Assembly (NCBI RefSeq): GCF_019795295.1
Contig: NZ_JAIMCG010000003.1
Span: 62,001 to 126,000, forward strand
DNA: 64,000 bases
Source: Cupriavidus sp. AU9028
GTDB lineage: Bacteria; Pseudomonadota; Gammaproteobacteria; Burkholderiales; Burkholderiaceae
Reading direction: 5' to 3'
Positions 9,549 through 22,246 of this stretch are shown here, piece by piece; position 1 is the stretch's first letter; every line of letters begins with the position of its first letter. The notes under the pieces are model-generated. The model was not told the origin of the DNA, made no database searches, and was given only the letters and a program-made list of their open reading frames with translations. The translations under genes were made by a program, and so were the position numbers.

Positions 9549-9852
9549 CGGAAGCAGTACGCGCACAGCGGGCGCCATACCGGCCCGAGCGCTGACGTCT
9601 GCGGGCACGCAGACCTGGGGATTCTCATGCCCCGCCGTGCCCCTCCCCTCTTTTCCCGCCGCCTGCCTTTCCATCCTGCTTCAGGATGTGCCGCCGCTTG
9701 ACCGAGCGAATGCGGCGAGCCCCGACTCGTCCGGACAATCCGGGAAACCGCTGCGGCGTTGCGCCTGTCATATCGTTCACGCATACTGCGCGCGGCGGCA
9801 TGTGTCGCTGCGATAACTTGCGCGCCGCATGGCGCCCCTGTCCCAGGTAGCG
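9549..9852. other. Intergenic region infA-sixA
   Basis: About 300 bp with a small hairpin (GTCTGC/GCAGAC, 9597-9614) that may help end infA transcription. No gene or strong promoter was seen. Confidence 0.4.
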
Positions 9853-10329
9853 ATGAATCTGATTCTCTGGCGCCACGCCGACGCCGAGGCGCTTCCCGAA
9901 ACGCGCAGCTTCGGCCGCACGGCCGACCTGCAACGCGCATTGACACGCCGCGGCCTTCGGCAGGCGGAATTGAGTGCGAAGTGGTTGAAAAACCGCCTGC
10001 CCGCCGACGCGCGCGTGCTGTGCAGCCCGGCCCAACGATGCCGCCAGACCGCAGCGGCCCTGGGCTTTCCCACCGAGGTTCTCGACGCGCTCTCGCCCGA
10101 GGCGGATGCCGCAACCGTCCTGCGCGTTGCAGGGTGGCCGAAGGCACGCGGCACGGTGGTGGTCGTCGGTCACCAGCCGTGGCTGGGTGCAACGGCCAGC
10201 CGCATCCTTGCCGGCCAGGAACAGCCCTGGAGCGTTCACAAGGGCTGCGTGTGGTGGTTCGGCAACGGGGAAAGCGAGCGGCCTACCGGCGCGCAGCTGC
10301 GGGCGGTCATCGACCCCGACTGGCTCTGA
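9853..10329 (+). CDS. sixA: Phosphohistidine phosphatase, SixA-like
   Basis: A 158-residue histidine-phosphatase-family protein. The catalytic RHG-type motif is LWRHADAE near the N-terminus, with a second conserved block VVVVGHQPWLG holding the other active-site His; SPAQRCRQTA supplies the substrate Arg. SixA proteins remove phosphate from phosphohistidine in phosphorelay or PTS proteins. ATG at 9853 was preferred because the family starts with MNLILWRHAxA. It lies before the OlsB-like gene but is separated from it by Pho boxes, so the two may be controlled separately. Confidence 0.85.
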   Translation: MNLILWRHADAEALPETRSFGRTADLQRALTRRGLRQAELSAKWLKNRLPADARVLCSPAQRCRQTAAALGFPTEVLDALSPEADAATVLRVAGWPKARGTVVVVGHQPWLGATASRILAGQEQPWSVHKGCVWWFGNGESERPTGAQLRAVIDPDWL

Positions 10330-10378
10330 GGGGAGCGCCGCGGGCCGGCAGCATCGTCGCGCCAGCGCGAATGCCGGC

Positions 10379-10434
10379 GCGTCACGTAACGGTCATCGGC
10401 GCTTCACGGCGCTGTCACCGCCCTTCCCTACATT
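10379..10434 (+). promoter_or_regulatory. Double Pho box with -10 element before the OlsB-like gene
   Basis: Four 7-mers recur exactly every 11 bp: GCGTCAC (10379), CGGTCAT (10390), GCTTCAC (10401), CTGTCAC (10412). This is the layout of two tandem PhoB boxes (consensus CTGTCAT with 4-bp spacers). A -10-like TACATT starts at 10429, 10 bp after the last repeat, the distance seen in PhoB-activated promoters where the box replaces the -35. Confidence 0.75.
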
Positions 10435-10469
10435 GTTTCGCAACAGTGTCGTCACCCACAGGACATCTG

Positions 10470-11315
10470 ATGCGAGACCTTCCGACGCCTACCCAACCGC
10501 TCTTCGAATCCCTGCCCAATGGCCTGGCCGGCCAGACGGCCCGGAGGCGTCTTCTACGGCCCTCATCTGCGTCAACGGATGCGGCACCTGCTCTCAGCGT
10601 GGCGTGGGCGCGTCACCAGGACGAAGTAGTCGAAGCACAGCGGCTGCGCTACAAGGTCTTTGCCGAAGAGATGGGCGCGCGCCTGTCGTCGCCGGCGGCC
10701 GAGCTGGACGTCGACATGTTCGACCCCTACTGCGATCACCTGATCGTGCGCGACCAGGCCACGCTGAAGGTGGTCGGCACCTACCGCGTGCTGCCGCCTC
10801 ACCAGGCCAAGCGCATCGGCTGCCTCTACTCGGAATCGGAATTCGATCTGGTGCGTCTGGCGCACCTGAAACCGAAGATGGTCGAACTGGGACGCTCCTG
10901 CGTGCACCGCGACTACCGCAGCGGCAGCGTCATCATGGCGCTGTGGGCGGGCCTTGGCGAGTACATGCAGCGCTGGGGCATCGAGTCGATGCTCGGCTGC
11001 GCCAGCGTGCCGATCCACGATGGCGGGCACTATGCGGCGAGCCTGAGCCGGCTGTTCCAGCAACGGCATCTGGCGCCGATCGAATATCACGCGTTCCCGC
11101 GACTGCCGCTGCCGGTGGACGAGCTGAACCAGTCGCTGGAGGTGGACCCCCCCGCCCTGATCAAGGGATATCTGCGCCTTGGCGCCCGGATCTGCGGGCT
11201 GCCGGCCTGGGACCCGGACTTCAACGTGGCGGACTTTCTGACCCTGCTGCGCGTGAACGAGATGAACCCTCGCTATGCGCGCCACTTCCTCGGCCTGCCT
11301 GCGGCGACCGCCTGA
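10470..11315 (+). CDS. olsB: GNAT-fold acyltransferase, probable ornithine N-acyltransferase (OlsB-like)
   Basis: A 281-residue protein of the acyl-homoserine-lactone-synthase-like GNAT group. Visible family features are QRLRYKVFAEEMGA, the DxxDPYCDHLIV block, VGTYRVLPP, and ELGRSCVHRDYRSGSVIMALWAGL. OlsB moves a 3-hydroxyacyl group from ACP to ornithine, the first step of ornithine lipid synthesis; an OlsA partner is not in the window. ATG at 10470 follows ACAGGA. Its promoter carries tandem Pho boxes, which fits a role in replacing phospholipids when phosphate is scarce. It could instead be an uncharacterised acyltransferase of the same fold. Confidence 0.75.
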   Translation: MRDLPTPTQPLFESLPNGLAGQTARRRLLRPSSASTDAAPALSVAWARHQDEVVEAQRLRYKVFAEEMGARLSSPAAELDVDMFDPYCDHLIVRDQATLKVVGTYRVLPPHQAKRIGCLYSESEFDLVRLAHLKPKMVELGRSCVHRDYRSGSVIMALWAGLGEYMQRWGIESMLGCASVPIHDGGHYAASLSRLFQQRHLAPIEYHAFPRLPLPVDELNQSLEVDPPALIKGYLRLGARICGLPAWDPDFNVADFLTLLRVNEMNPRYARHFLGLPAATA

Positions 11316-11363: not shown

Positions 11364-12896
11364 CTAGTCGTACACCACCTTGTACCGCATGCCGATGCGC
11401 TCCCACTCGTCGGCTTCCTTGGCCAGGCTGTACTCGATCAGCGGGTTGGCATCGATCCACGCGCGCGGCAGCCGCACCTCGAATCCCTCTTCCAGCGCTT
11501 CGGCGCGCTGACTGACACGGATCTCGGGCAGCTCGACATCCGCCCGGCGCCGGCACAGCACGAAGGCCAGGCGCAGGCAGAACAGCATGCGCCAGTCGAG
11601 GAAACGTCCCCGCCCGGACAGCTTGCCGAGCTTGCCAGCATGGCCGAGCACCAGCGTGGCGAGCCGCGTCTGGTCGGTCCTGGAAAAGCCCGGCATGTCG
11701 GCATGGGTGGCGATGTAGGCCGAGTGCTTGTGATAGCCGCTGTGGGCGATCGACATGCCGATCTCGTGCAGACTGGCCGCCCAGCCGAGCAGGGCGAGGT
11801 TCTCGTCGCGCCGCTCGTTGGCCGGCTCCGGAAACTGCGCGAGCAGGCGCTGCGCGGCCTGGCGTACGCGTGCCGCCTGCGCCCGGTCCACGCCGTAGCG
11901 CCGCACGAACTGGTCCACCGTCACGGTACGCATGTCCTCATGGTGGCTGCGCCCCAGCAGGTCGTAGAGCACGCCCAGCCGCAGCGCCCCCTCGGTGACA
12001 TCCATCCGTTCGATATCCAGTTCGGCGAACACGCCGAGCATGATCGACAGTCCGCCGGGCAGCACCGGAATGCGGTCCGGCTTCAGGCCGATCAGCCGTA
12101 CGCGGTTGGTGTTCTCCGCCTTGATCAGCGCCCGCTTGAGCCGCTCCAGACCCTCGCGCGTGATGCCATGCTCATGCGGGTTGTCGTTCATGCCGTTCAG
12201 CTCGATCAGCTCGGCCAGCGCCCGCGCGGTGCCGGAGGAACCGACCGCCTGCTGCCAGCCGGCGGCGCGATAGTCCCGCACCAGCACCTGGATCTCGCGA
12301 CGCGCCGCCAGCTCGGCCTGCTTCATCGAATAGTCGTCGACATTGCCGCTCGGGAAGAACTGGCGGCTATGCGACACGCAGCCGATATACAGGCTCTCCA
12401 TCAGCCTGGCGTCATAGCCGCTGCCGATGATGAATTCCGTCGAGCCGCCGCCGATATCGACCACCAGCCGGTTGCCGGTGCAGGCGGGCGCGTCGTGCGA
12501 GGCGCCCAGGTAGATCAGGCGGGCTTCCTCGCGGCCGGCGATGATCTCGATGGGGAAGCCCAGCGCGTTCTCCGCCTCGATCAGGAATTCGCTGGCGTTG
12601 CGGGCCACGCGCAGGGTATTGGTGGCCACCGCGCGGACATGCGCCGGAGAGAATTCGCGCAGCCGGTCGCCAAAACGCCGCAGCGCCTCCACCCCTCGGC
12701 TGCGCGCGGGCTGGTCCAGGTATTTGTCGGCGGTCAGGCCAGCGGCCAGCCGCACCGGCTCGCGCATCGCATCGACCTGGAAGATCTGGCTGGCCGGGCC
12801 GCTGGCGGTCTGCACGACATCGACGCGGCCGATCATCAGCCGGAAACTGTTCGATCCCATGTCGACGGCGGCTAGCAGGCGTGGAGTATCGTTCAT
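11364..12896 (-). CDS. ppx: Exopolyphosphatase, Ppx/GppA family
   Basis: A 510-residue ASKHA-fold phosphatase that removes terminal phosphate from polyphosphate (or pppGpp). The N-terminal phosphate-binding loop AAVDMGSNSFRLMIGRV and the second loop VVDIGGGSTEFIIG are intact, and a C-terminal HD-like region (WAASLHEIGMSIAHSGYHKHSAYI) follows, so it is a full-length Ppx. ATG at 12896 puts the family start MNDTPRLLAAVDMGSNS at the N-terminus; no clear ribosome site is visible. It diverges from ppk, the enzyme that makes its substrate. Confidence 0.94.
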   Translation of the reverse strand: MNDTPRLLAAVDMGSNSFRLMIGRVDVVQTASGPASQIFQVDAMREPVRLAAGLTADKYLDQPARSRGVEALRRFGDRLREFSPAHVRAVATNTLRVARNASEFLIEAENALGFPIEIIAGREEARLIYLGASHDAPACTGNRLVVDIGGGSTEFIIGSGYDARLMESLYIGCVSHSRQFFPSGNVDDYSMKQAELAARREIQVLVRDYRAAGWQQAVGSSGTARALAELIELNGMNDNPHEHGITREGLERLKRALIKAENTNRVRLIGLKPDRIPVLPGGLSIMLGVFAELDIERMDVTEGALRLGVLYDLLGRSHHEDMRTVTVDQFVRRYGVDRAQAARVRQAAQRLLAQFPEPANERRDENLALLGWAASLHEIGMSIAHSGYHKHSAYIATHADMPGFSRTDQTRLATLVLGHAGKLGKLSGRGRFLDWRMLFCLRLAFVLCRRRADVELPEIRVSQRAEALEEGFEVRLPRAWIDANPLIEYSLAKEADEWERIGMRYKVVYD

Positions 12897-13054
12897 TGAT
12901 GGTTTCGTATTGGTCGCCCCGTCATCCGGGATGCCCGACGGCCGCTCCGGTGCGGTTGCGCGGGCGGTCGGAGCGGCAGGCGAAGCCCGGCTGCGCCGGC
13001 ATGGGGACATCGAGAATATGTCCTGTGCATGTCGGTGTCGTGACAGAATTCAGA

Positions 13055-13088
13055 ATGTCATCACGCTGACACGGTTCCATGCAAAAGT
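13055..13088 (+). promoter_or_regulatory. Candidate Pho box upstream of ppk
   Basis: ATGTCAT (13055) and CTGACAC (13066) are spaced like a single Pho box (11 bp). The expected -10 position (13083) reads AAAAGT, a poor match, so this site is weaker than those before pstS and olsB. Confidence 0.4.
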
Positions 13089-13117
13089 CCAAGCATCGCC
13101 ATTCGAAGGTCATGCCC

Positions 13118-15196
13118 ATGACGACCACGCCGTCCGGTACGCTGCTCAACCGCGAACTTGGCATGCTGGAATTCAACTCCCGTGTCCTGGCACAGGCGGC
13201 CGATCCGTCCGTCCCCCTGCTCGAGCGGCTGCGTTTCGTCTGCATCGTATCGAGCAACCTCGACGAGTTCTTCGAGATCCGGATGGCGGGCCTGAAGGAG
13301 CAGATGCGCGACAACCCGTCCGGACTGACGCAGGACGGGCTGTCGGTGCAGCAGGCCTACCAGCTGGCGACGCAGCGCACGCAGCGGCTCGTTGCAGCGC
13401 AGTATGCCATGCTCCAGGACGTTATCCTGCCGCTGCTCGAACGCGAGGGTGTGTTTTTCCACCTGACCGGTTCCTGGAACGAAGCGCAGCGCAAATGGGC
13501 ACGCGAGTTTTTCGTGCGCGAACTCGGACCGGTGCTGACGCCGATCGCGCTCGACCCCGCGCATCCCTTCCCGCGCGTGCTCAACAAGAGCCTGAACTTC
13601 GTGGTCGAACTGTCCGGCAAGGACGCCTTCGGGCGCGAGGCCGAGCTGGCCATCGTGCAGGCGCCGCGGGCCCTGCCGCGGGTGGTGCAGATGCCGGAGG
13701 AGCTGTCCGGCTACCCCTACGGCTTCGTGCTGCTGTCCTCCTTCATGCAGAGCTTCGTGCACGAGCTGTTCCCGGCGATCACGGTCGACGGTTGCTACCA
13801 GTTCCGTGTCACGCGCAATTCGGATCTGTTCGTCTCCGAGGACGACATCACGGACCTGCGCGAGGCGCTGCAGGGCGAACTGCCCTCGCGGCACTACGGC
13901 GATGCCGTGCGGCTGGAGGTATCGGCGGAGACGCCGCCCGCCCTGACGCGCCGCCTGCTCAACGAAATCGGCCTGGGGGAGCAGGACCTCTACCGCGTCA
14001 GCGGGCCGGTCAACCTGGTGCGGCTGATGCCGATCCCGGACATGGTCGATCGGCCTGCATTGAAGTACCCGCCGCACGTGCCGATGGCGGTCAAGGCGTT
14101 CGCCGGCGGCCAGCCGATGTTCGACGTGATTCGCCAGCGCGACGTGCTGCTGCACCACCCTTACGAGAGCTTCAATTCGGTGCTGGACCTGCTGCAGCTG
14201 GCGGCCAACGATCCGGACGTGGTGGCTATCAAGCAGACCGTCTACCGCACCGGCAACGACTCGGCGGTGATGGATGCGCTGATGACGGCGGTGCGCAATG
14301 GCAAGGACGTCACGGTGGTGGTCGAGCTGCTGGCGCGCTTCGACGAGGAAACCAATATCAACTGGGCCGAGCGGCTGGAATCGGCCGGCGCCCACGTGGT
14401 GTACGGGGTGGTCGGTCACAAGTGCCACGCCAAGATGCTGCTGATCGTGCGGCGCGAATCCGCGGCGCCGAAGAACCGCCAGACGCGACTGCGCCGCTAC
14501 GTTCATCTGGGCACGGGCAACTACCATCCGCGCACCGCACGGCTTTATACCGACTTCGGCCTGTTGACCGCCAACGAGGAAGTCTGCGAGGACGTGCATC
14601 ACGTCTTCCAGCTGCTGACCGGTACCGCGGGCTCGATCAAGCTGCACCATCTGTGGCAGTCGCCGTTCACGATGCAGAGCAACCTGGTCGAGAACATCCG
14701 CGCGGAGGCGCGCAACGCGCGCGCGGGCAAGCCGGCACGGATCATCGCCAAGATGAACGCGCTGCTCGAACCCTCGGTGATCGACGAGCTGTACAACGCC
14801 TCGCGCGCCGGGGTGAAGATCGACCTGATCGTGCGCGGCGTCTGCGCGCTGCGTCCAGGCGTGCCCGGAATGTCGGAGAACATCACGGTGCGATCGATCG
14901 TGGGCCGCTTCCTCGAGCATCACCGGGTCAACTACTTCCTTGCCGGCGGCAGCGAACTGCTGTACCTGTCCAGCGCCGACTGGATGGACCGCAACCTGTT
15001 CCGCCGCGTCGAGGTCGCCTTCCCCATCCTGGACAAGACGCTGAAGGCCCGGGTGATCCGGGAAAGCCTGCTGGTGCATCTGGACGACAACGCGTCGGCG
15101 TGGGTGATGCAGCCGGATGGCACCTACCTGCAGCAGGCCAATGGCGACAAGGACCGCCGCGTCAGCCAGATCGAACTGCTGGCGATGTTTACCTGA
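13118..15196 (+). CDS. ppk: Polyphosphate kinase 1
   Basis: A 692-residue cytoplasmic or membrane-associated enzyme that makes polyphosphate from ATP through a phosphohistidine. The N-terminus LLNRELGMLEFNSRVLAQA is the PPK1 signature; the catalytic-domain His motifs are VGHKCHAKM and FLEHHRVNYFL, and HLGTGNYHPRTARLYTDFG is conserved. ATG at 13118 is preferred over 13079: GAAGGT lies 7 nt upstream, the length then matches the ~690-residue family, and a possible Pho box with its -10 would fall inside the longer version. Confidence 0.94.
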   Translation: MTTTPSGTLLNRELGMLEFNSRVLAQAADPSVPLLERLRFVCIVSSNLDEFFEIRMAGLKEQMRDNPSGLTQDGLSVQQAYQLATQRTQRLVAAQYAMLQDVILPLLEREGVFFHLTGSWNEAQRKWAREFFVRELGPVLTPIALDPAHPFPRVLNKSLNFVVELSGKDAFGREAELAIVQAPRALPRVVQMPEELSGYPYGFVLLSSFMQSFVHELFPAITVDGCYQFRVTRNSDLFVSEDDITDLREALQGELPSRHYGDAVRLEVSAETPPALTRRLLNEIGLGEQDLYRVSGPVNLVRLMPIPDMVDRPALKYPPHVPMAVKAFAGGQPMFDVIRQRDVLLHHPYESFNSVLDLLQLAANDPDVVAIKQTVYRTGNDSAVMDALMTAVRNGKDVTVVVELLARFDEETNINWAERLESAGAHVVYGVVGHKCHAKMLLIVRRESAAPKNRQTRLRRYVHLGTGNYHPRTARLYTDFGLLTANEEVCEDVHHVFQLLTGTAGSIKLHHLWQSPFTMQSNLVENIRAEARNARAGKPARIIAKMNALLEPSVIDELYNASRAGVKIDLIVRGVCALRPGVPGMSENITVRSIVGRFLEHHRVNYFLAGGSELLYLSSADWMDRNLFRRVEVAFPILDKTLKARVIRESLLVHLDDNASAWVMQPDGTYLQQANGDKDRRVSQIELLAMFT

Positions 15197-15236: not shown

Positions 15237-16535
15237 TCACTGGCGGACGCTTCGGTCCGTCGGAAACACCACGCGGAACACGCTGCCCTTGCCCACTTCG
15301 CTGCTGATGCGCAGCTCGGCATGGTGGCGCGACAACACGTGCTTGACGATGGCCAGGCCAAGGCCGGTGCCACCTGTATCGCGCGAGCGGCTGCGGTCGA
15401 CGCGGTAGAAGCGCTCCGTCAGCCGCGGAATATGCTCGGCATCGATGCCAAGCCCGGTGTCCTTGACGGCGAATACCGCGTGCCCGTGCTGCCAGTCCAG
15501 GCAGATGCAGATGCGGCCGCCGGCCGGCGTATAGCGGATGGCGTTGGTGACCAGATTGCCGAATGCCGACATCAGTTCGCTATGCGTGCCCCGGATGCCG
15601 ACCGTCGGATCGATCTCGGTATCGATGGCATGCCTGCCCTGCGACAGTGCCTCGGCGTCATGCACCAGATGCTGCACCACCGCGGCGATGTCGATCCGAT
15701 CCTGGCTGGGCGGCTGCATGTCGCTCTCCAGCTTGGCCAGCGCCAGCAGGTCCTCGACGATATGCTGCATCCGCATGGACTGCGTCAGCATCATGTCGAC
15801 GTAGCGGCGCTGGTCCTCCGGAGATACCGGGAGGTCGCGCATGGTTTCCAGGAAGCCGGTCAGCACCGTCAGCGGCGTCTTCAGCTCGTGCGACACGTTG
15901 GCGACGAAGTCGCGCCGCATCGCCTCGGTGTTCTCGAGCTTGGTGATGTCCTGGGTCAGCACGAGCTTGCGGTTGTCGCCGTAGGGAAGCACCTGCACCG
16001 CGATCACGTTCTGCTTGTGCTCGCCCATGTCGCGCATTTGCAGCGGTTCGTCGTAGCGTTGCAGCATCAGGTACTGGACGAACTCCGGGCGCCGGATCAG
16101 GTGCGTGATGCGCTGGCGGACATCGCGCCGCGCATTGAGGCCAAAATGCAGTTCGGCAACCTCGTTGCACCATTCGATCTGGTCGGCGTCGTCGAGCATC
16201 AGCACGCCGTTGGGCGACGCCTGGATGGCCTGGATGAAGCGGGTGTGCTGCTGCTCGACCTGCAGCACCTGCATGCGCCAGCGCTTGACCAGCCGGTGCA
16301 GGCGGTAATACACCTCGCCCCATAGCCCGAGCGCGCTCGGGATGTCGCCATACGCGGGGGCGTCCAGCACCTTCCACAGCCGGTTGATCTGGTACAGGTA
16401 GTACAGCAGCAGCGCCATCAGCACGCCGCAGGCGAGCCCGAGGGCGGCCTGGGGACTGACGGTCAGATACATGGCCAGCGTCCCGATCGCGATGAGGATC
16501 AGGACGGCCAGCGAGCGGGCCCAGATGACGTTCAT
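15237..16535 (-). CDS. phoR: Phosphate regulon sensor histidine kinase PhoR
   Basis: A 432-residue membrane kinase. Two N-terminal membrane helices lie within about the first 50 residues, followed by a charged linker, a PAS domain (FIQAIQASPNGVLMLDDADQ), HisKA with phospho-accepting His in NVSHELKTPLTVL, and a HATPase with NLVTNAIRYTPAGG, KDTGLGID and GGTGLGLAI. No large periplasmic domain is present, as usual for PhoR, which senses phosphate through the Pst-PhoU complex. ATG at 16535 removes a low-complexity N-terminal extension. A 147-bp gap separates it from phoB. Confidence 0.94.
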   Translation of the reverse strand: MNVIWARSLAVLILIAIGTLAMYLTVSPQAALGLACGVLMALLLYYLYQINRLWKVLDAPAYGDIPSALGLWGEVYYRLHRLVKRWRMQVLQVEQQHTRFIQAIQASPNGVLMLDDADQIEWCNEVAELHFGLNARRDVRQRITHLIRRPEFVQYLMLQRYDEPLQMRDMGEHKQNVIAVQVLPYGDNRKLVLTQDITKLENTEAMRRDFVANVSHELKTPLTVLTGFLETMRDLPVSPEDQRRYVDMMLTQSMRMQHIVEDLLALAKLESDMQPPSQDRIDIAAVVQHLVHDAEALSQGRHAIDTEIDPTVGIRGTHSELMSAFGNLVTNAIRYTPAGGRICICLDWQHGHAVFAVKDTGLGIDAEHIPRLTERFYRVDRSRSRDTGGTGLGLAIVKHVLSRHHAELRISSEVGKGSVFRVVFPTDRSVRQ

Positions 16536-16682
16536 GGTTGCAGCTTCGAGGGGCCGGGCGCTCCGCCGTCGCGGCCGGCCCGCGCCGGATGGGGCGCAGT
16601 GTGCCACGAAACCGGCGAGGCGAGCCCGGGGGCGCCACGGGGGCAGCGGAATCCGGGCGCCGAGATTGCCGGCCCGTTGCTG

Positions 16683-17390
16683 TCAGAGTCCGGGCGTGCG
16701 CGCGAGCCGGTAGCCGCTTCCACGCACCGTCTCGATCATCGCGCTGAATCCGCCCGGGGCGAGCGCGGCGCGCAGGCGCTTGATATGAACGTCCACCGTG
16801 CGCTCCTCGACAAAGACGTGGTCGCCCCACACCTGGTCCAGCAGCTGCGAGCGGCTGTGTACGCGCTCCGGATGGGTCATCAGGAAATGCAGCAGACGGA
16901 ATTCGGTCGGCCCGAGATCGAGCCGGATGGGACCGGACTCGTTCTCTCCGGTGACGCGATGGGTCGCCGGGTCCAGCTTCAGGCCGTTGATCGACACCAC
17001 ATCGTCAGTCAGCTGCGGCGCACGGCGGCGCAGCACCGCCTTGATGCGCGCCAGCAGCTCCTTCGGCGAGAACGGCTTGGTGACGTAGTCGTCGGCGCCC
17101 GCTTCCAGGCCCATCACCTTGTCCTGTTCCTCGCTGCGCGCGGTCAGCATGATGATGGGGATCTGCTTGGTCCGCTCGTTGTTGCGCAGTTCCTTGGCGA
17201 ACACGGCGCCCGACTTGCCGGGAAGCATCCAGTCCAGCAGCACCAGGTCGGGCAGCACATCGCTCATCAGCGACAGCGCCTGCTCGGCATTGTAGGCACG
17301 GATCGGATAGTGACCCGCGTGCTGCAAGTTGACCGCGATCAGCTCGGCGATGGCCGGCTCGTCCTCGACGACCAGAATACTGCTAGGCAT
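16683..17390 (-). CDS. phoB: Phosphate regulon response regulator PhoB
   Basis: A 235-residue OmpR-class regulator. The receiver domain has the acidic pair ED near residues 9-10, the phosphorylated Asp at about 53 (LVLLDWMLPGKSG), the conserved Thr in MLTAR and Lys in VTKPFSPKELLAR; the winged-helix domain includes EFRLLHFLMTHPERVHSR and a recognition helix region ERTVDVHIKRLR. PhoB binds 7-bp repeats spaced 11 bp, sites for which are seen before pstS and olsB. It starts 27 bp after phoU, so it is probably co-transcribed with the pst genes. Confidence 0.96.
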   Translation of the reverse strand: MPSSILVVEDEPAIAELIAVNLQHAGHYPIRAYNAEQALSLMSDVLPDLVLLDWMLPGKSGAVFAKELRNNERTKQIPIIMLTARSEEQDKVMGLEAGADDYVTKPFSPKELLARIKAVLRRRAPQLTDDVVSINGLKLDPATHRVTGENESGPIRLDLGPTEFRLLHFLMTHPERVHSRSQLLDQVWGDHVFVEERTVDVHIKRLRAALAPGGFSAMIETVRGSGYRLARTPGL

Positions 17391-22163: not shown

Positions 22164-22212
22164 ATGTCCTCCAGAGAACATGGTTGGGAATGTCAGTTTG
22201 TTGACATGCCGA

Positions 22213-22246
22213 ACTGTATTCGTCCTCTGTGACAGAACCATGACAT
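22213..22246 (-). promoter_or_regulatory. Pho box and -10 element of the pst operon
   Basis: On the minus strand ATGTCAT and CTGTCAC are separated by 4 bp (22246 to 22229), a nearly perfect Pho box. TACAGT lies exactly 10 bp further on (22218-22213). Transcription would start about 43 nt before the pstS ATG. Confidence 0.85.

What the first reader, a model, noticed from the sequence alone, without database searches (positions are those of the whole stretch)
10379..11315. Tandem Pho boxes in front of an OlsB-like acyltransferase gene
Four 7-mers related to CTGTCAT recur exactly every 11 bp (10379, 10390, 10401, 10412), and a -10-like TACATT begins 10 bp after the last. This is the known design of PhoB-activated promoters, and the pst promoter in this window has the same 10-bp distance. 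The gene encodes a GNAT-type protein like ornithine N-acyltransferases, so a phosphorus-free membrane lipid may be made under phosphate limitation and is encoded inside the phosphate gene block.
Basis: partly seen in the sequence, partly recalled or inferred. Interest (0 to 1): 0.7.

Follow-up and report, generated by a model that had tools for sequence, protein, structure and literature searches.

The report
Phosphate-controlled promoter of ornithine-lipid gene
A gene that probably makes a phosphorus-free membrane lipid sits in this Cupriavidus-type bacterium's phosphate gene block behind a switch that looks built to turn on when phosphate runs out; this matches a known strategy, and comparison with relatives suggests how one related group may have lost the off-state.

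Summary
Four TCAY cores at exact 11-bp steps (10379, 10390, 10401, 10412), then 10 bp, then TACATT: the four-core pattern occurs once in the 4.68-Mb genome and in 0 of 300 simulated windows. Of 52 distinct promoters examined in the genus, 52 have TACATT at this distance and 49 keep all four cores. The gene encodes an Acetyltransf_5 protein whose best models are the two OlsB models (174 and 172 bits, below their narrow cut-offs of 350 and 320); a Burkholderia lata orthologue scores similarly (162, 159). An OlsA-like gene lies elsewhere beside pyrC, with no such repeat in 3.4 kb around it. Pho boxes before olsB were already predicted in Burkholderia sensu lato (PMC7814305) and tested in Acinetobacter (PMC11828411), so this is a new member of a known kind.

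One lead I did not find in print: in Burkholderia sensu stricto, the only group of Burkholderia sensu lato reported to make ornithine lipids constitutively, gene order around olsB is changed and a 26-bp promoter-like element precedes olsB in 28 of 30 genomes (0 of 219 others). It marks a single clade.

The parts
10379..10385 (+). PhoB half-site 1, GCGTCAC
   Evidence: GTCA in 50 and TCA in 2 of 52 distinct promoters of the genus
10390..10396 (+). PhoB half-site 2, CGGTCAT
   Evidence: GTCA in 52 of 52
10401..10407 (+). PhoB half-site 3, GCTTCAC, the weakest site
   Evidence: GTCA 23, TCA 26, neither 3 of 52
10412..10418 (+). PhoB half-site 4, CTGTCAC, next to the promoter
   Evidence: GTCA in 52 of 52
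10429..10434 (+). -10 element TACATT, 10 bp after half-site 4; no consensus sigma-70 promoter with a -35 found in 10250-10550
   Evidence: TACATT in 52 of 52 distinct promoters of the genus
10460..10463 (+). AGGA, likely ribosome-binding site, 6 nt before the ATG
   Evidence: sequence; GGACA in the leader of 52 of 52
10470..11315 (+). olsB-like gene, 281 aa, Acetyltransf_5 (GNAT) N-acyltransferase
   Evidence: start region conserved in relatives
9829..10329 (+). sixA-like histidine phosphatase gene, upstream neighbour on the same strand (SixA model 51.6 bits, below its cut-off 74.5)
11364..13010 (-). ppx/gppA-type exopolyphosphatase gene, convergent with olsB (true start inferred to lie about 110 nt inside this ORF)
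   Evidence: relatives match from about residue 32-39
13029..13046 (-). Pho-box pair CTGTCAC-N4-CCGACAT of ppx; 10 bp further a -10-like TATTCT (13018-13013)
   Evidence: pair + 10 bp + TANNNT in 14 of 14 loci examined
13055..13072 (+). Pho-box pair ATGTCAT-N4-CTGACAC before ppk
13079..15196 (+). ppk1, polyphosphate kinase gene
15237..16607 (-). phoR-type sensor kinase gene
16683..17390 (-). phoB, the proposed activator
   Evidence: TIGR02154 343.7 bits, cut-off 296.2
22229..22246 (-). pst Pho box ATGTCAT-N4-CTGTCAC, 10 bp, TACAGT (22218-22213): the yardstick in this window

Best explanation
Positions 10379-10434 form a PhoB-activated sigma-70 promoter. When phosphate is scarce, PhoR phosphorylates PhoB. 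PhoB dimers bind the four half-sites side by side on one face of the helix (two 22-bp Pho boxes). They take the place of the missing -35 element and recruit RNA polymerase to TACATT, so a transcript starts near 10441 and makes OlsB. [quoted passage not shown] An OlsA-like O-acyltransferase, encoded elsewhere and apparently not under PhoB, adds the second acyl chain. The resulting ornithine lipid replaces phospholipid. Shown here: the sites, their spacing, their conservation, the protein family, the regulators and a candidate partner gene. Inferred: PhoB binding, induction, substrate and product.
For: The 4-core array is unique in the genome and conserved in the genus with constant geometry (49 of 52 distinct promoters with all four TCAY cores in register). 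The pst promoters show the same spacing (30 of 30). OlsB models fit best. An OlsA-like partner beside pyrC scores 133.8 bits on an OlsA model, with no TCAY pair at 11 bp in its 3,360-base locus. phoB and a phoR-type gene are in the block. olsB followed by convergent ppx is kept in 70 of 70 named loci outside Burkholderia. Parallels in print: PMC7814305 (sections 16 and 22 read; other passages seen) predicts Pho boxes before olsB in Burkholderia s.l. and reports, as data not shown, that P. xenovorans replaces PE with ornithine lipids at low phosphate; PMC11828411 (passages) shows for A. baumannii a Pho box before olsB, dependence on phoR, and olsA elsewhere and not phosphate-regulated. Unidentified amino lipids are reported in some Cupriavidus strains (passages of PMC12982536 and PMC12180409).
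Against: Half-sites 1 and 3 match the consensus poorly, and a pst-trained matrix ranks single olsB pairs only 21st and 32nd in the window. The OlsB and OlsA equivalog cut-offs are not reached. Of 14 more distant loci of the order, 1 has four cores in the array, 4 have three and 9 have two or fewer, so the four-fold array is not general. I saw no olsB expression or identified ornithine lipid for Cupriavidus in the listings. The amino lipids are unidentified, and I did not see the growth medium; if it was phosphate-rich, gating would not be strict. A. baumannii OlsB also makes lysine lipids, so the head group is not certain.
Confidence: 0.86

Rival explanations
1. The promoter is PhoB-controlled, but the enzyme acylates another amino acid (lysine, glutamine or glycine) and makes a different phosphorus-free aminolipid.
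For: OlsB of A. baumannii makes both ornithine and lysine lipids (passages of PMC11828411); sequence does not fix the head group; OlsB equivalog cut-offs are not reached; amino lipids seen in Cupriavidus are unidentified.
Against: The GlsB (glycine) model scores 19.8 bits against 173.6 for OlsB. The B. lata orthologue (65 % identical), from a genus reported to make ornithine lipids, gives a similar profile picture, 162.4 bits.
Confidence: 0.15
2. The 11-bp array is bound by another OmpR-family regulator, not PhoB.
For: Direct repeats at about 10-11 bp serve many OmpR-type regulators (general knowledge); the olsB half-sites are weaker than the pst ones.
Against: Same 10-bp distance to the -10 as pst; phoB, pstS, ppx and ppk are neighbours; boxes of the same kind lie before ppx and ppk; PhoB/PhoR control of OL synthesis in other bacteria.
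Confidence: 0.06
3. The enzyme is a FeeM- or autoinducer-synthase-like N-acyl amino acid synthase that makes a signal or antibiotic, not a membrane lipid.
For: Weak similarity to FeeM (20.3 bits, cut-off 27) and to solved autoinducer synthases (E 0.02).
Against: OlsB models cover the domain at E 6e-51 and 2.5e-50; the gene is found in 226 of 249 genomes of the family, as expected for core lipid metabolism; an OlsA-like partner exists.
Confidence: 0.03
4. The repeats are chance and the gene is read through from sixA.
For: Some half-sites are poor; 2 of 100 null windows reach the matrix score.
Against: One exact match in the genome, 0 of 300 simulated windows, conservation in the genus.
Confidence: 0.02

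Closest known systems
olsB of Burkholderia sensu lato with predicted Pho boxes (PMC7814305; B. cenocepacia BCAL1281, P. xenovorans LB400)
   Same: Orthologous protein (63-67 % identity to the named Burkholderia and Paraburkholderia loci); Pho-box array and a TACATT-like -10 at the same distance; in Paraburkholderia the same gene order (23 of 23 named loci).
   Different: Here the genus is Cupriavidus and all four cores are intact. In Burkholderia s.s. half-sites 2 and 3 are lost, the gene order is changed and an extra element is present.
Acinetobacter baumannii olsB (PMC11828411, passages seen)
   Same: Pho box before olsB; olsA at a separate site without a Pho box.
   Different: There induction and lipids were measured, and lysine lipids are made as well; in the passages I saw one Pho box is described, against four half-sites here.
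E. coli PhoB-activated promoters such as pst and phoA (recalled) and the pst promoter of this window
   Same: 11-bp direct repeats replacing the -35 element, 10 bp to the -10.
   Different: Four half-sites with weaker matches at olsB.
OlsF of Vibrio cholerae (PMC12186959, abstract read)
   Same: Ornithine lipid made at low phosphate; phoB mutants were studied.
   Different: One bifunctional enzyme of another family; the OlsF model gives only 55.9 bits here.

Membership tests
OlsB, ornithine N-acyltransferase | Acetyltransf_5 / GNAT domain | tested here: met
   PF13444, 130 bits, cut-off 22.4
OlsB, ornithine N-acyltransferase | Best match among curated families is OlsB, over the full domain | tested here: met
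   NF052554 173.6 and NF052555 171.5 bits; next is OlsF 55.9
OlsB, ornithine N-acyltransferase | Curated equivalog score reached | tested here: not met
   173.6 of 350 and 171.5 of 320. The models are narrow: a B. lata orthologue gets 162.4 and 158.6. I therefore file it as OlsB-like
OlsB, ornithine N-acyltransferase | An OlsA-type partner in the same genome | tested here: inconclusive
   Beside pyrC: OlsA models 133.8 and 126.0 bits, below cut-off 300 but best of the three PF01553 proteins found
OlsB, ornithine N-acyltransferase | Makes lyso-ornithine lipid from ornithine and a 3-hydroxyacyl donor | not testable with these tools
   needs biochemistry
PhoB-activated promoter (Pho box) | At least two 7-bp half-sites at 11-bp spacing | tested here: met
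   four
PhoB-activated promoter (Pho box) | -10 element 10 bp after the last half-site, no consensus -35 | tested here: met
PhoB-activated promoter (Pho box) | Matrix trained on known sites scores it above background | tested here: inconclusive
   four-site score rank 2 in window but 2 of 100 null windows reach it; pairs rank 21 and 32
PhoB-activated promoter (Pho box) | PhoB binding and induction by low phosphate | not testable with these tools
   needs an experiment

The most novel reading that the evidence does not exclude
In an ancestor of most Burkholderia sensu stricto, the PhoB-gated olsB gene became constitutive through a change in cis. The sixA-olsB pair ended up on the other side of ppx-ppk, and a 26-bp element (TTTCTGCTAAAGTCAAWTCGGCGACA, with a TGnTAAAGT extended -10-like core) arose upstream of the old Pho boxes and acts as a phosphate-independent promoter. 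This would explain why, within Burkholderia sensu lato, only this genus is reported to make ornithine lipids on rich medium, while Paraburkholderia, Trinickia and probably Caballeronia, like the Cupriavidus genome of this window, keep the ancestral arrangement.
Probability: 0.35. Interest if true: 0.55.

Novelty: new member of a known kind. Interest (0 to 1): 0.38.

Why it matters
It extends the predicted PhoB-olsB switch to the genus Cupriavidus and places the lipid switch beside the polyphosphate genes ppx and ppk, which carry Pho-box pairs too. One regulator could then control uptake, polyphosphate storage and membrane phosphorus sparing in a genus used for bioplastic production, where unidentified amino lipids have been reported. 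The comparison also gives a sequence-level, testable reason for the published split between constitutive and non-constitutive ornithine-lipid makers in Burkholderia sensu lato.

Tried and rejected
The consensus CTGTCAT-N4-CTGTCAT with 3 mismatches does not find the array; the strict TGTCAY-N5-TGTCAY pattern finds three places in the genome, pst among them, and not olsB. A second olsB-like gene in the genome was considered: the weak hit at contig C11 (E 0.027) lies in a region whose ORFs look to me like cobalamin and histidine-phosphatase genes (ORF list; labels recalled, no family search), so I dropped it as chance.

Loss of half-sites 2 and 3 as the sole cause of constitutive ornithine lipid in Burkholderia was rejected: Trinickia shows the same loss (10 of 10 distinct promoters) but is reported as not making them on complex medium (PMC7814305); two genomes of genus g37 show it too. 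Against the novel case: the sigma-70 scan of the B. lata region calls no forward promoter (the element has no -35), and its one call lies on the opposite strand, using the complement of TGCTAA in the element as its -35. The four-fold array is not general in the order: 1 of 14 distant loci has four cores. In 22 Polynucleobacter or unclassified MAG loci my scan gave a four-site arrangement as best in 3 (L075, L078, L079); one (L087) had too little upstream sequence, and some starts may be misplaced. 23 of 249 genomes of the family have no match to the gene at E 1e-40, most but not all of them small genomes.

L026 and L064 were left out because their contigs begin inside the gene. 'Ralstonia' includes L069, titled Burkholderiaceae bacterium 26; L070 was kept apart. 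The genome set is a sample; I fetched wide stretches for 20 of the 30 g35 genomes and 20 loci of other genera, because the place list was cut. A structure prediction was not run, as it would not settle the substrate.

Full report
What is there. At 10379-10434 four TCAY cores lie at exact 11-bp steps, followed after 10 bp by TACATT, with an ATG and a likely ribosome-binding site at 10470. The open frame of 281 aa is an Acetyltransf_5 protein (130 bits). Tested genes of the block are sixA-like, olsB-like, ppx (opposite strand), ppk, phoR-type and phoB (opposite strand) and pstS (opposite strand).

Is it chance? Single half-sites are weak (4, 6, 3 and 6 matches of 7 to CTGTCAT). The regular spacing is the evidence. 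The pattern of four TCAY at 11 bp occurs once in 4,683,457 bases, at this place, with 0 in the reversed control, and never in 300 simulated 64-kb windows. A matrix made only from pst half-sites of 30 loci of the genus (10 distinct half-sites, the window's own pst included) places the four-site array second in the window behind pst, yet 2 of 100 null windows reach that score and the single pairs rank only 21st and 32nd. The conclusion therefore rests on spacing and conservation, not on the quality of single sites.

Conservation. Of 64 rows of the genus, 52 have distinct 140-base upstream stretches. All 52 have TACATT 10 bp after half-site 4, and 49 have all four TCAY cores in register; the three others (L049, L053, L054) lack half-site 3. 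In Paraburkholderia (26 distinct of 29 rows) half-sites 1 and 2 are kept in 26, half-site 3 in 10 and half-site 4 in 16, with TACATT (19), TAAATT (6) or TATATT (1) at the same distance. In 14 genomes of genus g33, which I infer but did not test to be Caballeronia, TACATT is at the same distance in 14, half-sites 1 and 2 are kept in 14, half-site 4 in 13 and half-site 3 in 0, with sixA-olsB-ppx order in 14. Of 14 more distant loci of the order, one has four cores, four have three and nine have two or fewer.

The enzyme. The two curated OlsB models give 173.6 and 171.5 bits; the next families are OlsF at 55.9, exosortase-associated acyltransferase at 28.3 and GlsB at 19.8, with FeeM at 20.3 in Pfam. 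Neither OlsB cut-off (350, 320) is met. The models look narrow: the orthologue in B. lata, from a genus in which ornithine lipids are reported, scores 162.4 and 158.6, and four other orthologues tested score 158.7 to 174.1. I call it OlsB-like, most probably OlsB. The closest solved structures by sequence are autoinducer synthases at E 0.02. Three PF01553 proteins were found in the genome. The one beside pyrC fits OlsA models best (133.8 and 126.0 bits, cut-off 300), and no pair of TCAY cores at 11 bp was found in its 3,360-base locus; a promoter further upstream was not looked at.

Mechanism. The simplest reading is a PhoB-dependent promoter that gates the first and committing step, with the second enzyme not under PhoB. 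That is the arrangement reported for A. baumannii: a Pho box before olsB, induction at low phosphate and dependence on phoR, with olsA elsewhere and not phosphate-controlled (PMC11828411, passages). That paper also reports lysine lipids, so the head group here is inferred.

What was known. PMC7814305 (sections 16 and 22 read; other passages) predicted Pho boxes before olsB in 21 of 43 Burkholderia s.l. genomes and, with a second matrix and as data not shown, in all 43. It reported, as data not shown, ornithine lipids in P. xenovorans at low phosphate. Among the 35 Burkholderia s.l. strains it grew on complex medium, it found ornithine lipids only in Burkholderia s.s. My searches for ornithine lipid with Cupriavidus, with Ralstonia and phosphate, and for phosphate starvation, PhoB and membrane lipid with Cupriavidus gave listings of titles and abstracts in which I saw no description of this promoter in Cupriavidus. 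Passages of two papers report unknown amino lipids in some Cupriavidus strains: one in strain AcVe19-1a (PMC12982536) and two in strain LEh21 but not LEh25 (PMC12180409). They are not identified and I did not see the growth medium. They are candidate products of this gene; if the medium was phosphate-rich, they would speak against a strict switch. The window feature is a new member of a known kind.

The block as a regulon. The divergent ppx-ppk interval carries a Pho-box pair on each side. On the ppx side, pair, 10 bp and TANNNT are found in 14 of 14 loci examined: the window and 13 named loci grouped as Cupriavidus. On the ppk side a pair is followed after 10 bp by AAAAGT in 13 of 14; for L059 the scan reported another pair. 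So olsB, ppx and ppk all lie behind Pho-box-like pairs, besides pst.

A lead beyond the window. In the 70 named loci outside Burkholderia, olsB is followed by ppx on the opposite strand in 70 (in the 22 Polynucleobacter or MAG loci without sixA in view). In 10 named Burkholderia loci the order is ppk-, ppx+, sixA+, olsB+ in 5, and ppx is not in view in 5. In the larger set, 15 of 26 distinct Burkholderia promoters (18 of 30 rows) show ppx upstream on the same strand, the rest show no ppx, and none of the 30 rows shows the other order. Half-sites 2 and 3 have lost TCA in 26 of 26 Burkholderia, but also in 10 of 10 Trinickia, a genus reported not to make ornithine lipids on complex medium. What I found only in Burkholderia is a 26-bp stretch: one exact match in each of 28 of 30 genomes of genus g35 and in 0 of 219 other genomes of the family. 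In the 24 of 28 genomes whose olsB place is printed, it begins 122 nt before the olsB start. Of the two misses, one keeps TTTCTGCTAAAGTCA and one, G277, does not. The stretch contains TGCTAAAGT, like an extended -10, but no -35; a simple promoter scan of the B. lata region calls nothing on the forward strand and one site on the reverse strand that overlaps the stretch. The stretch fits the published phenotype, yet it marks a single clade and so perhaps a single event; the correlation is weak until tested. PMC7814305 says the context is usually conserved (data not shown). I saw no mention of the changed order or the element in the sections I read or in the listings; the other papers listed there were not read for this.

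Noticed in passing
window 22190-22207 (-): A second Pho-box-like pair (ATGTCAA-N4-CTGACAT) lies just after the pst -10, over the expected transcription start; such a pair is present in 30 of 30 pst loci of the genus. It could be a repressing or second-promoter site.
   Followed up: partly
window 13013-13088: Divergent Pho-box pairs between ppx and ppk; on the ppk side the hexamer 10 bp downstream is AAAAGT in 13 of 14 loci, not a normal -10, and overlaps the start of the longest ppk frame, so the real ppk start is probably further in.
   Followed up: partly
window 10451-10455: A further GTCAC, out of 11-bp register with the array, lies in the olsB leader; GTCA is in the leader of 52 of 52 and CGTCACC of 47 of 52 distinct promoters of the genus.
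   Followed up: partly
L117 and other Burkholderia loci, 122 nt upstream of olsB: Genus-specific 26-bp element TTTCTGCTAAAGTCAAWTCGGCGACA, 28 of 30 genomes, 0 of 219 others, together with a changed gene order.
   Followed up: yes
L068 5870-5990: The three Ralstonia-group olsB promoters have CTGTCAY, 10 bp, TAGAAT and a longer, irregular run of GTCAC-like sites upstream.
   Followed up: partly
L096, L109, L114, L206-L215 upstream of olsB: Trinickia promoters share a TGAA...GTGTC stretch before the array (9 of 10 distinct), mostly followed by CGACATGTCAT.
   Followed up: partly
L136, L138: The strict pattern TGTCAY-N5-TGTCAY occurs at only two places in the genome besides pst (contigs C10 and C39); their genes were not examined.
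   Followed up: no
literature: Unknown amino lipids were reported in some Cupriavidus strains (passages of PMC12982536 and PMC12180409); they could be products of this gene.
   Followed up: partly
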